Shown here: positions 24,049-26,829 of the stretch, piece after piece
How the letters are laid out: each line of letters begins with the position of its first letter
How positions within the stretch are numbered: the first letter of the stretch is position 1
From: Saprospiraceae bacterium
Lineage (GTDB): Bacteria > Bacteroidota > Bacteroidia > Chitinophagales > Saprospiraceae
Assembly: GCA_020629715.1 (NCBI GenBank)
Contig: JAHDCU010000001.1
Span: 186,001-250,000 of the forward strand
DNA: 64,000 nt
Direction: 5' to 3'
The notes under the pieces: generated by a model
Told to the model about the DNA's origin: nothing
Seen by the model: the letters and a program-made list of their open reading frames with translations, nothing else
Databases searched by the model: none
Translations under genes and position numbers: made by a program

Positions 24049-24572
24049 TGGATAATTATTTTGATTTTTTTGGTCTTGAGATTACGTTCAGTATCGATAA
24101 AGCATCATTAAAAAAGCAATACTTTGTTAATACTAAAGCCTATCACCCTGACCGTTATATCAACGCTTCTCCTAAAGAGCAGCTTGCAGTACTCCAGAAG
24201 TCAACTCTGAATAATACTGCTTATAAAACACTCAAAGATGATCAAAAGAGGTTGGCTTATATTCTTACATACTTTGGTAAATTAGGTGAAGGTACGACTC
24301 CTGAAATTCCCCAATCATTTTTGATGGAGATGATGGATATCAATGAAGAAGTGATGGAATTGCAAATGGATTATGATGGTGCCAAGCATCATCAAATACA
24401 GGAGGAAGCCAACAAAATCATCTCTGAACTTGATGACGAGGCCAAAATTATTTTATCCAGTGAAGATCCTATCGAAAGTGGTGATCCACGTTTAGATGAA
24501 GCTTTAGCTTATTATTTGAAAAGCAAATACATCCGTAGATTACAAGAAAACTTAGATAAAATAGAAAGCTAA
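24048..24572 (+). CDS. hscB: Fe-S assembly co-chaperone HscB (J-domain protein)
   Basis: 174 residues. J domain at about 1-75 with HPD (33-35) in AYHPDRYINASPKEQ, and a C-terminal three-helix domain of the HSCB oligomerisation type (about 95-172, with FLMEMMDINEE, the ISCU-contact helix). It stimulates HscA/DnaK ATPase and hands IscU to the chaperone in iron-sulfur cluster transfer. The start ATG overlaps the rseP stop, so translation is coupled. Iron-sulfur partner genes are not in the window. Confidence 0.92.
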   Translation: MDNYFDFFGLEITFSIDKASLKKQYFVNTKAYHPDRYINASPKEQLAVLQKSTLNNTAYKTLKDDQKRLAYILTYFGKLGEGTTPEIPQSFLMEMMDINEEVMELQMDYDGAKHHQIQEEANKIISELDDEAKIILSSEDPIESGDPRLDEALAYYLKSKYIRRLQENLDKIES

Positions 24573-24614
24573 TTTTTTCCTTTTGAATAGATGATTTTAT
24601 CTATTTATTTACTT

Positions 24615-24622
24615 TACATTTG
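24615..24622 (+). promoter_or_regulatory. -7 promoter element of the tRNA-Leu locus
   Basis: TACATTTG matches TAnnTTTG. It lies upstream of the interrupted tRNA-Leu 5' half at 24662, so the fragment would be transcribed as a leader of the intact tRNA. No TTG at the ideal -33 distance. Confidence 0.5.
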
Positions 24623-24661
24623 TGTCCTCGAAGCAAATATCGATTTGCACTTTTGATGTAT

Positions 24662-24704
24662 AGCGATGTGGAGGTTCCGATAACTATCGGAAGGAAGACA
24701 CATC
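24662..24704 (+). repeat. tRNA-Leu 5'-half copy with a palindrome in the D-loop
   Basis: AGCGATGTGGAGG, then TTCCGATAACTATCGGAA (24675-24692, palindromic except the centre), then GGAAGACACATC. Next to the intact tRNA-Leu (GCCGATGTGGTGG-AATT-GGTAGACACG) the acceptor, D-stem, conserved GG and GACAC all line up, and only AATT is replaced by the palindrome. Similarity stops before the anticodon arm. The copy ends 12 bp before the intact tRNA. See the matching arrangement at tRNA-Met. Confidence 0.7.
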
Positions 24705-24716
24705 TTTTTGACATAG

Positions 24717-24800
24717 GCCGATGTGGTGGAATTGGTAGACACGTTGGATTCAAAATCCAATGTCAGCAATGACGTGGGGGTTCGAGTCCCCCCATCGGTA
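24717..24800 (+). tRNA. tRNA-Leu (anticodon CAA)
   Basis: 84 nt. Acceptor GCCGATG/CATCGGT (G1-U72 wobble), D-arm GTGGAATTGGTAGACAC, anticodon stem TTGGA/TCCAA around loop TTCAAAA with anticodon CAA, long class II variable arm TGTCAGCAATGACG, T-arm GGGGG-TTCGAGT-CCCCC, discriminator A. CCA is not encoded. Confidence 0.97.
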
Positions 24801-24855
24801 CTAACTTGTGGGTAATTTTCGTTTTATCTTGAAAAAGAGGTTTAAATGTTTGTTT

Positions 24856-25107
24856 ATGTTCTATGTCTATATTCTTTATTCTGAAAAATTTGACTCCTTC
24901 TATATAGGACAAACCAATAACCTCACCAAGAGGATCTTAAGGCATAACAAAGGCTATGTAAGGTCAACTAAAACCAAGAGACCTTGGGTGGTCTGCTACT
25001 CCGAATGTTATGATTCCAGAGCTCATGCCATGAGTAGAGAAGCTCAACTAAAAGCATGGAAATCGAAATCCAAAATACGTGAATTAGTAGACGTATCCCG
25101 ATTTTAA
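24856..25107 (+). CDS. GIY-YIG nuclease (small standalone)
   Basis: 83 residues from the ATG at 24856; the frame is open to 24808, but homologues start MFYVYILYS. GIY-YIG core: VYILYS ... FYIGQTNN, then Arg (LTKRILRHNKG), His, and Glu in SREAQLKAWKSKSK. Single-domain members of this family are metal-dependent DNA or RNA endonucleases, with roles seldom known. The gene starts 55 bp after tRNA-Leu. Its final codons and stop (VSRF, TAA at 25105-25107) lie inside the palindrome that begins the downstream tRNA 3' fragment. The position between tRNA halves suggests it belongs to a small mobile element. Confidence 0.88.
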   Translation: MFYVYILYSEKFDSFYIGQTNNLTKRILRHNKGYVRSTKTKRPWVVCYSECYDSRAHAMSREAQLKAWKSKSKIRELVDVSRF

Positions 25108-25154
25108 TCGGGATGTCAGCAATGACGTGAGGGTTCGAGTCCCTCCATCGGTAC
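25095..25154 (+). repeat. tRNA-Leu 3'-half copy preceded by a palindrome
   Basis: ATCCCGAT-TTTA-ATCGGGAT (25095-25114) runs into TGTCAGCAATGACGTGAGGG and on through TTCGAGT-CCCTC-CATCGGTAC (to 25154). The last 41 bp match 24761-24801 of the intact tRNA except at two sites, G to A and C to T, which pair with each other in the T-stem. It therefore comes from a tRNA that folded correctly. The fragment lacks acceptor 5' strand, D-arm and anticodon. Confidence 0.85.
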
Positions 25155-25159
25155 GAAAT

Positions 25160-25195
25160 AAAAAAACCTAAGTAGAAGTCTGCCTAGGTTTTTTT
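25160..25195. terminator. Bidirectional intrinsic terminator
   Basis: AAAAAAACCTA and TAGGTTTTTTT arms around a 14-nt loop. It follows the tRNA-Leu 3' copy on the plus strand and the end of the symporter gene on the minus strand, so it can serve both. Confidence 0.9.
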
Positions 25196-25224
25196 ATGGT
25201 ATAAAACACGTATCGCTTTGCGGT

Positions 25225-26829
25225 CTACCACCATACCGCATAAATAACTGCCAGTAAACCGAATACAGCAATTGCTGCTCCTTTAAATAACATTGAAGTC
25301 TCAAATAATGACTTCTCTAATTCTATAGCTTTCTCGTCATCGCCTTGATTGGTCATCATGGATATCGCAATCATGATAATAGATAGAATCACGAAGCTTA
25401 CTCCCATTTTATTGATGAACGGCAACGTGCTTTCTGGAAATGCTATATCAATACCCAAACTTAACGGAAGGGATATCAATACAACCGCCATGGCAGCTTT
25501 TGCAGAGGCTCTTTTCCAAAACATTCCAAATAGGAAAATCACTAAAATACCTGGACTGAAATATCCTGTATATTTCTGTATAAAAGAGAATGCACTTCCT
25601 AACTCTTTAAACTGAGGAGCTATACATACACCTATAAATAATGCTACAGCTGCCGTAATTTTGCCGATAGTAACTAATTGTTTTTCAGACTTATTCTTAC
25701 CAAAAAATGGCTTATACAAATCCATAGTAAAAATGGTCGAAGCACTATTGACCATAGAGCTGATGCTCGATCCAACAGCCGCAATCACAGCTGCAAAACA
25801 TAATCCTTTAAATCCTGCTCCGACGAACTCATTGAGTACCCAAGCATAGACCTGGTCACCTTTCTCTACATTGGCATTCATAGCAAAGGCTACTATACCA
25901 GGAAGTACAACGATAAGTGGCAATAGTATTTTCATAATCGCTGCAAAGGCAATACCCTTACGAGCCTCGCTAAGGGACTTTGCCGCTAAAGCTCTCTGAA
26001 TAATATATTGGTTCATGCCCCAGTAATATACATTGGCAATCCACATACCTCCAATGAGTACTCCTAGGCCAGGTAGCTTTTCCCATACATCTTGGGTTGC
26101 GCCCTTATCATCGATATAAGTAAGTTCTCCTTTGAATACTATCATGTTAAATTTATCAGAAAACTGGTCAGTCAATTTACCGAGTCCTGCCATCGCTCCA
26201 TCCGCTCCACCAAAAGCATCTAGCGCTAAATAGGTGGTAAACAATCCACCAACCACCAAAAATACCACCTGTATCAAGTCCGTCCATACCACTGTTTTCA
26301 GACCACCAAAAATGGAAAAAGTAGCTGAATATAGTGCCAATCCTAAAACACCTATCCACATATTAATACCTAAGGTAGCTTCTAACGTAAGCGCTCCGAG
26401 ATATAACACTGAGGTGATGTTGACAAATACGAATATGAGTAGCCAAAATATTGCTAACCCCGTACGTACATTACTATCAAACCGCTGCTCTATGAATTGA
26501 GGCATCGTATAAATACCCTTTTTGAGAAACACCGGTATGAGAAACCATGCAACAATAATCAGAGTAGCCGCAGCCATAAATTCATAGGAAGCGATCGCCA
26601 TACCAAATCGGAAAGCATCACCGGACATTCCAATGAATTGTTCTGCAGAAATATTACTGGCAATCAATGATCCACCAATAATCCACCAAGGCAGTGATTT
26701 TCCTGCCAAGAAGTAGCTCTCTGTAGTCTCTCCTCCCTTACTTTTACGTGTAGAAATATAAACGGCGATACCAATGACAACACATAAATACCCTATAAAA
26801 CTGATATAGTCTAAAGTTGAAAATCCCAT
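25225..26829 (-). CDS. Sodium/sugar symporter, SSS family
   Basis: 534 residues with about 13-14 predicted membrane helices, a standard SGLT-type layout. Signatures include SLIASNISAEQFIGMSG in the second helix region (Na+ site), FGGLKTVVWTDLIQ and the C-terminal GYFSPGILVIFLFGMFWKRA. It should couple Na+ influx to uptake of a hexose or related solute. No glycosidase or catabolic gene adjoins it, so the substrate is open. It is separated from the esterase gene by about 94 bp. Confidence 0.93.
   Translation of the reverse strand: MGFSTLDYISFIGYLCVVIGIAVYISTRKSKGGETTESYFLAGKSLPWWIIGGSLIASNISAEQFIGMSGDAFRFGMAIASYEFMAAATLIIVAWFLIPVFLKKGIYTMPQFIEQRFDSNVRTGLAIFWLLIFVFVNITSVLYLGALTLEATLGINMWIGVLGLALYSATFSIFGGLKTVVWTDLIQVVFLVVGGLFTTYLALDAFGGADGAMAGLGKLTDQFSDKFNMIVFKGELTYIDDKGATQDVWEKLPGLGVLIGGMWIANVYYWGMNQYIIQRALAAKSLSEARKGIAFAAIMKILLPLIVVLPGIVAFAMNANVEKGDQVYAWVLNEFVGAGFKGLCFAAVIAAVGSSISSMVNSASTIFTMDLYKPFFGKNKSEKQLVTIGKITAAVALFIGVCIAPQFKELGSAFSFIQKYTGYFSPGILVIFLFGMFWKRASAKAAMAVVLISLPLSLGIDIAFPESTLPFINKMGVSFVILSIIMIAISMMTNQGDDEKAIELEKSLFETSMLFKGAAIAVFGLLAVIYAVWW

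What the first reader, a model, noticed from the sequence alone, without database searches (positions are those of the whole stretch)
24615..25195. tRNA-Leu locus that looks like a tRNA gene split by a ~440-bp nuclease-carrying element
Seen: a promoter box, a tRNA-Leu 5' half, a palindrome, an intact tRNA-Leu, a GIY-YIG gene, a second palindrome, a tRNA-Leu 3' half and a terminator, in that order. The two halves would pair in six of seven acceptor positions. Promoter before and terminator after the halves are where an undivided tRNA would need them. Inference: an element bounded by CCGAT/ATCGG palindromes (24675 to 25114) entered a tRNA-Leu gene and supplies a complete replacement tRNA, so insertion is not lethal. 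A tRNA-splitting, tRNA-restoring GIY-YIG element would be new to me.
Basis: partly seen in the sequence, partly recalled or inferred. Interest (0 to 1): 0.87.

Follow-up and report, generated by a model that had tools for sequence, protein, structure and literature searches.

The report
tRNA-splitting, tRNA-restoring GIY-YIG mobile element
A tiny mobile gene for a probable DNA-cutting enzyme appears to have jumped into a transfer-RNA gene while leaving a complete copy of that gene in place, and the same layout recurs at many different tRNA genes in several bacterial phyla.

Summary
In the window an intact tRNA-Leu(CAA), a GIY-YIG ORF and a displaced tRNA-Leu 3' part follow one another. A congener carries the same hscB/tRNA-Leu locus with neither GIY gene nor 3' copy. 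The displaced part matches the congener's tRNA; the window's intact tRNA has one changed T-stem pair.

Among 172 best-scoring GIY loci in four samples, 143 (139 of 168 without repeats) have an intact tRNA within 260 bp, always on the same strand. In 125 a piece of that tRNA lies beyond the GIY gene (112 with 13 nt or more; controls 6 and 1 of 286). Seventeen isotypes are hit in several phyla. Filled and empty sites are seen at two loci. Many fragments carry palindromes cleanly inserted in tRNA loops. Tandem arrays reach ten copies.

Best reading: a homing-type GIY-YIG element that carries part of its target tRNA gene and restores it, like fragment-carrying endonuclease ORFs of fungal mitochondria. 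Cutting and movement are inferred. Nine literature searches found no description.

The parts
24615..24622 (+). TACATTTG, promoter-like box (TAnnTTTG, the Bacteroidota -7 motif as recalled)
   Evidence: motif near chance frequency in the window; weak
24663..24701 (+). older tRNA-Leu 5' fragment (GCGATGTGG ... GGAAGACAC) interrupted by a palindrome; not part of the GIY insertion
   Evidence: also present in congener G001, which has no 3' copy and no GIY match in the fetched stretch
24675..24692 (.). palindrome TTCCGATAACTATCGGAA at about the D-loop position of the older 5' fragment
   Evidence: hairpin, z -2.85 for 24655-24712
24717..24801 (+). intact tRNA-Leu(CAA): host 5' part plus (inferred) element-supplied 3' part
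   Evidence: against the congener it differs at 24777 and 24791, one T-stem pair changed from A-T to G-C
24802..24855 (+). spacer between tRNA and GIY ORF
   Evidence: in this arrangement 27 of 37 loci have 35-58 bp between tRNA and GIY match
24856..25107 (+). GIY-YIG nuclease ORF (in-frame GTG start also at 24808); its last codons run into the displaced tRNA copy
25082..25095 (+). inner piece of the displaced tRNA-Leu copy (GAATTAGTAGAC..., D-arm), diverged and coding
   Evidence: the Rfam tRNA model also matches 25087-25153 at 15.6 bits, E 3.6, below its cut-off
25096..25113 (.). palindrome TCCCGATTTTAATCGGGA in place of the anticodon arm of the displaced copy
   Evidence: perfect arms of 9; CCCGAT(N4)ATCGGG is single-copy in the genome
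25114..25154 (+). displaced original 3' part of tRNA-Leu
   Evidence: T-stem as in the congener's intact tRNA
25158..25197 (+). terminator-like inverted repeat with T run
   Evidence: 19-nt arms, 89% complementary; not listed by the scan

Best explanation
This is a very small mobile element of the homing-endonuclease type, made of a GIY-YIG nuclease gene plus a piece of its target, a tRNA gene. Shown: it sits inside a tRNA locus, on the tRNA's strand, in one of two mirror arrangements. In A, a complete tRNA is followed by GIY and then a displaced 3' part. In B, a displaced 5' part is followed by GIY and then a complete tRNA. Near relatives have the same locus with one undivided tRNA. Related nucleases tend to sit in the same isotype, and the nuclease is under purifying selection. 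Inferred: the nuclease cuts undivided tRNA genes, probably in a loop sequence. The break is repaired by copying the element through tRNA homology, so the gene is split, but the part carried by the element completes a working tRNA and the insertion costs little. The leftover copy often carries a palindrome in a loop, which may block its cut site or stop precise excision. The short direct tRNA repeats allow tandem arrays. In the window the element took tRNA-Leu(CAA) behind hscB in arrangement A.
For: Adjacency: intact tRNA within 260 bp in 24/33, 73/80, 21/29 and 25/30 loci; 143/143 on the same strand; a tRNA piece beyond the GIY gene in 20, 63, 18 and 24. Pieces of 13 nt or more stand in 112 of 143, against 1 of 286 control regions; any piece in 125 against 6 of 286. 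Further out there were 4 tRNAs in 318,629 bp (D2), 2 in 40,747 bp and 1 in 45,521 bp (D3, D4). Empty/filled: of 30 hscB loci only L038 and L048 have GIY, and the congener is empty. In Flavobacterium, L113/L205 is filled; the 29 other loci fetched show one tRNA-Arg match and no GIY. In 12 genomes the left match runs to tRNA position 22 and the right match resumes near the start of the complete tRNA. Target fidelity: isotype changes on the GIY tree 48 against a shuffled minimum of 67; Arg anticodon 16 against 23. Selection: dN/dS 0.08-0.35 in 7 of 10 pairs, 3 saturated. Arrays: ten units of about 457 bp after tRNA-Met in G341. Loops: 63/81 junctions in D, anticodon or T loops, where about 45% would be expected from position counts.
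Against: No cleavage, movement or expression was measured. 29 of 172 loci have no tRNA within 260 bp; several end near a contig edge, others do not. The eight-copy array G397:C34 (L315) and the G143 pair (L320) have no tRNA in the fetched stretch. Host group also clusters on the tree (21 changes against a shuffled minimum of 27), so much of the spread may be old or within lineages. The complete tRNA should also be a cut site, and nothing here shows how the carrier is spared. Chimerism of the window's tRNA rests on one compensated T-stem pair, which could be later drift. Palindromes are not explained by plain homing and also occur elsewhere in some genomes. Arrays can arise by unequal exchange rather than re-insertion. 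No copy was found in the phage or plasmid collections with one query each. Loci were the best scorers for queries that are themselves tRNA-linked.
Confidence: 0.68

Rival explanations
1. A structure-specific nuclease (SLX1-like) works with mobile palindromes: hairpin DNA is inserted into the loops of hairpin-forming DNA, tRNA genes being the commonest target, and GIY is the gene that mobilises palindromes, as RAYT transposases do for REP repeats (recalled).
For: The nearest solved relatives with a known activity are SLX1 structure-specific nucleases. In 30 loci the insert is placed without loss of tRNA bases, 17 times as exactly 20 nt; 28/30 inserts are inverted repeats against 48/1500 control segments. 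The same palindrome also sits in other repeated sequences of Dokdonia and Sphingobacterium. Many isotypes are hit.
Against: The palindrome of the window is single-copy in its genome, and 4 of 12 other GIY-carrying genomes had none of the CTGCCTG(N4)CAGGCAG type. GIY clades track isotype, which structure alone would not predict. Of 40 palindrome places read (L165-L204), 37 have no GIY match within about 500 bp.
Confidence: 0.17
2. A tRNA-dosage device: the nuclease keeps or amplifies tRNA genes for the host's benefit, as phage SegB amplifies tRNA loci against tRNA-cutting defences.
For: SegB is a GIY-YIG enzyme that cuts within tRNA genes, is widely linked to phage tRNAs and drives their amplification (PMC13096335, passages). 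Arrays of up to ten units exist.
Against: In the four arrays read that have a tRNA of the element's isotype (L314, L316, L317, L318), GIY and a tRNA piece are repeated but the complete tRNA is single; L315 has none. Patchy occurrence within a genus looks selfish rather than useful.
Confidence: 0.07
3. Tandem tRNA duplication debris beside an unrelated GIY gene.
For: Repeated tRNA parts flank the gene; tRNA arrays duplicate easily (recalled); the window's upstream fragment exists without GIY.
Against: The order tRNA, GIY, tRNA piece (or its mirror) recurs in 112-125 of 143 loci, always on the tRNA strand, and near relatives have neither GIY nor the second piece.
Confidence: 0.04
4. Integrase-type tRNA-site island reduced to a remnant.
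For: Integrases commonly use tRNA genes and restore the 3' end (recalled).
Against: The unit is about 350 bp and in the window holds no other ORF of 50 aa or more wholly inside it. A 5' part is duplicated in arrangement B, junctions lie mostly in D, anticodon and T loops, and the nuclease is under purifying selection.
Confidence: 0.02

Closest known systems
Fungal mitochondrial mobile ORFs that carry a gene fragment (Allomyces/Glomus atp6, atp9, cox2, nad3; PMC3630166, passages read)
   Same: An endonuclease ORF is inserted in a gene with a duplicated gene end. The carried end makes a hybrid gene, while the displaced native end matches the near relative.
   Different: Those are organellar protein genes, C-terminal ends, and in Glomus mostly LAGLIDADG enzymes (GIY-YIG in atp9). 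Here they are tRNA genes of bacterial genomes, many isotypes, either end duplicated, palindromes in the leftover, and units of about 350 bp.
Phage SegB and other free-standing GIY-YIG homing endonucleases (PMC2988022 and PMC13096335, passages)
   Same: A GIY-YIG enzyme beside tRNA genes. SegB cuts inside tRNA genes; its reported motif RAWTSGAAC reads GTTCSAWTY on the other strand, which is like the T-loop (my reading).
   Different: Those are phage genomes, and the passages describe no carried tRNA part and no split and restored gene. PHROG matches of A1 members were weak and to generic homing endonucleases or unknowns.
UPF0213 small GIY-YIG proteins (1zg2, 1ywl) and SLX1
   Same: Sequence family: a GIY-YIG domain; the two UPF0213 chains are of similar size (107 and 96 residues).
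   Different: The solved UPF0213 proteins are labelled hypothetical. SLX1 works with SLX4 and has an added domain (recalled).
Group I introns with GIY-YIG genes, including tRNA-Leu introns (recalled)
   Same: A GIY-YIG gene inside a tRNA-Leu locus; 7 of 20 A1 members match NCBIfam's group I intron endonuclease model.
   Different: No intron structure was found in the window stretch and none is needed, because a complete tRNA stands beside the gene.

Membership tests
Free-standing GIY-YIG homing endonuclease gene | GIY-YIG domain with conserved residues of the active site (residue roles recalled) | tested here: met
   six invariant columns (Tyr, Tyr, Arg, His, Thr, Glu) across 20 members
Free-standing GIY-YIG homing endonuclease gene | alleles with and without the gene at the same locus | tested here: met
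Free-standing GIY-YIG homing endonuclease gene | cuts the allele that lacks the gene and is inherited preferentially | not testable with these tools
   needs enzyme and crosses
Gene-fragment-carrying mobile ORF (fungal mitochondrial type) | duplicated part of the target gene beside the ORF, with one complete gene | tested here: met
Gene-fragment-carrying mobile ORF (fungal mitochondrial type) | displaced native part resembles the relative more than the carried part does | tested here: inconclusive
   window: yes, but by one compensated pair; in other loci the outward pieces are on average 99.5% identical to the complete tRNA, so they cannot tell
Gene-fragment-carrying mobile ORF (fungal mitochondrial type) | organellar protein gene | tested here: not met
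   tRNA genes of bacterial genomes
Group I intron with GIY-YIG | intron RNA structure splitting the gene | tested here: not met
   Rfam scan of 24500-25300 to E 5 gave no group I intron
tRNA-site integrative element | integrase in the element | tested here: not met
   window only: the sole listed ORF of 50 aa or more wholly inside the unit is the GIY gene
SLX1-like structure-specific nuclease | cleaves branched or hairpin DNA | not testable with these tools
   sequence relation only

The most novel reading that the evidence does not exclude
A new class of bacterial mobile element in which a minimal SLX1-like GIY-YIG nuclease reads tRNA-gene loops as its target. It leaves a short palindrome as its mark in the broken copy and rebuilds a complete tRNA gene from its own cargo, so it can invade essential genes of nearly every isotype, and re-invade the same site, across several bacterial phyla.
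Probability: 0.35. Interest if true: 0.93.

Novelty: new variant of a known kind. Interest (0 to 1): 0.86.

Why it matters
tRNA genes are among the most conserved and essential targets in a genome. A 350-bp element that splits them and repairs them with its own cargo would be among the smallest autonomous mobile elements. It would explain many small GIY-YIG genes and tRNA fragments in Bacteroidota and Patescibacteria genomes, and it gives a testable bacterial counterpart to the hybrid-gene elements of fungal mitochondria. It also links a nuclease family of unknown function (UPF0213-like) to a concrete candidate substrate, and it raises a direct question: why do the broken tRNA copies carry clean palindrome insertions in their loops?

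Tried and rejected
Literature: nine searches of the open-access PMC library showed no description of tRNA-restoring GIY-YIG elements in the listings. Searches returned no paper, one unrelated phage paper. One search was aimed at the fungal analogue. Only listings were seen, except passages of three papers. Subscription papers and preprints are not held.

Palindrome as a genome-wide repeat of the host: rejected for the window (single copy) but true for some genomes, so its role stays open. I first took the D-arm-like GAATTAGTAGAC in the window for coincidence; other loci with long inner tRNA pieces changed that. Vehicles: none found with the window protein in plasmids or L019 in phages at E 1e-8; the viral-contig scan with A3 matched 58 stretches, none of them a relative. 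No structure prediction or covariance model was run.

Host/element junction at the palindrome: outward pieces average 99.5% and inward pieces 97.1% identity, but inward pieces lie next to or inside the ORF and may simply decay faster, so I do not count this as proof.

Counting notes: all samples are best-scoring loci, not random ones. D1 is the window, L002, L004 and L006 of the own genome, and L009-L037. L003 and L007 (open frames of 605 and 475 aa) and the repeats L005 and L008 were left out before counting. One search's 81 junctions include three repeats; one search drops them. L235-L254 were fetched but not counted; L319 and L320 were only scanned for tRNAs. Of the 125 tRNA pieces, 13 are under 13 nt and may be chance.

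Full report
What is in the window. A tRNA-Leu(CAA) gene at 24717-24801 is intact. A GIY-YIG ORF follows it and ends at 25107 (PF01541, E 8e-17). A 42-nt copy of the tRNA 3' part stands at 25113-25154, followed by an inverted repeat with a T run. Aligning the displaced copy with the intact gene shows that it also holds D-arm-like sequence, and that a palindrome, TCCCGATTTTAATCGGGA, stands where the anticodon arm should be. That palindrome motif is single-copy in the 4.13-Mb genome.

Empty site and the upstream half. The order hscB then tRNA-Leu(CAA) is conserved. An hscB query in 60 genomes (own included) matched in 29; of the 30 loci fetched, 21 carry a tRNA-Leu(CAA) behind hscB. Only two of the 30 show a GIY match: ours and G035. 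The congener G001 has the intact tRNA and, in the fetched stretch, no GIY match and no 3' copy, but it does have the upstream tRNA-like fragment with its palindrome-like insert. So that fragment is older than, or independent of, the GIY insertion. The displaced 3' part in the window has the congener's T-stem pair, whereas the intact tRNA has a changed pair (24777/24791). That is what an element-supplied 3' part would give, though one compensated pair could also be later drift. In G035 the same locus was entered in the mirror arrangement: 5' part with palindrome, GIY, complete tRNA. G028 has a palindrome-bearing tRNA-Leu fragment before its intact tRNA-Leu and no GIY match in the fetched stretch.

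A recurrent family. Four sets of best-scoring loci were treated alike: D1 (33 loci: the window, three more own-genome loci and 29 from relatives), D2 (80 named loci from genome contigs), D3 (29 Patescibacteria loci) and D4 (30 loci from the own class). An intact tRNA lay within 260 bp in 24, 73, 21 and 25 of them, always on the GIY strand (143 of 143), and a piece of that tRNA lay on the other side of the GIY gene in 20, 63, 18 and 24. Pieces of 13 nt or more stand in 19, 58, 12 and 23, that is 112 of 143; equal control regions of the same loci gave any match in 6 of 286 and 13 nt or more in 1 of 286. Background tRNAs were 4 in 318,629 bp (D2), 2 in 40,747 bp and 1 in 45,521 bp (D3, D4). Four entries repeat a locus (168 distinct, 139 with tRNA). 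Twenty-nine of the 172 have no tRNA in range; some of these run off a contig, others (for example L028, L035, L255, L259, L311, L312) do not. Seventeen amino-acid isotypes are seen, Arg most often in D2. The named D2 hosts are mainly Bacteroidota, with Ignavibacteria/Chlorobiota, Patescibacteria, Omnitrophota and a Planctomycetota MAG; the Chloroflexi MAG L086 has its tRNA 330 bp away. An A2-type GIY gene is held by 86 of 198 class genomes (E up to 1e-12) and 82 of 116 Patescibacteria genomes (E up to 1e-8). In the window's own genus the three genomes have GIY genes at different tRNAs: Leu, Arg and Met in G000, Ala in G001, Val in G002. Not every GIY-YIG gene belongs: of seven PF01541 hits in the own genome, L002, L003 and L007 have no tRNA in the fetched stretch.

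A second filled/empty comparison. A 2-kb query across the Flavobacterium L113 locus was run on 41 genomes of the genus, itself included; 40 matched. The 29 other loci fetched each show one tRNA-Arg match and no GIY match; one (L225) has short traces of tRNA pieces upstream. In 12 genomes the left match runs exactly to query 749, which is tRNA position 22 of the fragment, and the right match starts at 1032-1048, the complete tRNA starting at 1043; in most other genomes the main left match stops earlier.

Palindromes. In D1 and D2, at the inner end of the outward tRNA piece, perfect inverted repeats with arms of 9 or more stand in 26 of 81 loci against 9 of 2430 control segments, and arms of 6 or more in 63 against 241. 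So 18 of 81 show no such repeat. The junction lies in the D, anticodon or T loop in 63 of 81, where the position counts would give about 45%. In 47 of 80 loci tRNA pieces stand on both sides; in 30 of these they are contiguous in numbering with a 17-80 nt insert, 17 times exactly 20 nt, and 28 of the 30 inserts are inverted repeats against 48 of 1500 control segments. The commonest is CCTGCCTGCCGGCAGGCAGG (11 of 30), each time at GGATA|G in the D-loop. In some genomes the same palindrome also sits in other repeated sequences: 8 of 12 genomes tested had the CTGCCTG type, and of 40 places read 37 have no GIY match nearby.

Mobility and selection. On a quick tree of the GIY proteins (137 rows, about half the forks unresolved) the isotype changes 48 times against at least 67 in 1000 shuffles, the Arg anticodon 16 against at least 23, and the arrangement 26 against at least 31; host group changes 21 times against at least 27, so relatives also tend to share hosts. 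One small tRNA-Cys clade joins a Bacteroidetes, an Ignavibacteriae and a Patescibacteria member (support 83). dN/dS is 0.08-0.35 in seven of ten pairs; three pairs are saturated. Arrays: G341 has tRNA-Met followed by ten units of about 457 bp each ending in tRNA positions 48-74; G328 has three units after tRNA-Leu; G397:C23 has three units before tRNA-Arg; G380 two before tRNA-Glu; the eight-copy array G397:C34 has no intact tRNA in the 4.5 kb fetched. The own genome has two tandem units before tRNA-Arg(TCG).

How it most likely works. The arrangement matches gene-fragment-carrying mobile endonuclease ORFs of fungal mitochondria, where a foreign gene end carried by the element makes a hybrid gene and the displaced native end matches the near relative (PMC3630166, passages read). 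[quoted passage not shown] SegB, one of them, cuts within tRNA genes and is linked to phage tRNAs (PMC13096335, passages); its motif reads GTTCSAWTY on the other strand, which resembles the T-loop (my inference). I therefore take the element as a homing-type unit that cuts tRNA genes and is copied in through tRNA homology. The nearest solved relatives, UPF0213 and SLX1, leave room for a structure-specific enzyme that reads loops or palindromes. Cutting, copying and the palindrome's part are inferred.

Novelty. No paper in the listings of nine searches describes it (open-access library only). The principle, an endonuclease gene that brings its target's missing part, is known from fungal mitochondria. 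Its use on bacterial tRNA genes of many isotypes, at both ends, with loop palindromes, is to my knowledge new; I call it a new variant of a known kind.

Noticed in passing
L004/L005 (G000:C7:425314 and 425689): The own genome has a tandem pair of GIY units (375 bp apart), each preceded by the first 16 nt of tRNA-Arg(TCG), then one complete tRNA-Arg; the fragment aligned holds a 29-nt insert in the D-loop.
   Followed up: partly
L006 (G000:C8:427954): A further own-genome GIY gene lies 209 bp after a tRNA-Met(CAT) without a recognisable fragment behind it.
   Followed up: no
L314 (G341:C9:905000-911500): Ten tandem units of about 457 bp of a GIY element after one tRNA-Met, each ending in tRNA positions 48-74.
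   Followed up: partly
L315 (G397:C34:6300-10800): An eight-copy GIY array (period about 367 bp) with no intact tRNA in the fetched stretch.
   Followed up: no
L185-L201 (Dokdonia), L176-L184 (Sphingobacterium), L168-L172 (Thermoflavifilum): The palindrome CCTGCCTGCCGGCAGGCAGG also interrupts other, similar repeated sequences, mostly away from tRNA genes, apparently a tiny mobile palindrome.
   Followed up: partly
L083 upstream of the GIY gene: The displaced 5' tRNA-Arg piece differs from the complete tRNA at several positions, and its D-stem would not pair well with the piece beyond the palindrome; possibly a host/element junction at the palindrome.
   Followed up: no
L295, L308, L309, L302: Some displaced copies are nearly full-length tRNA genes whose main visible damage is one or more inserts in loops.
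   Followed up: no
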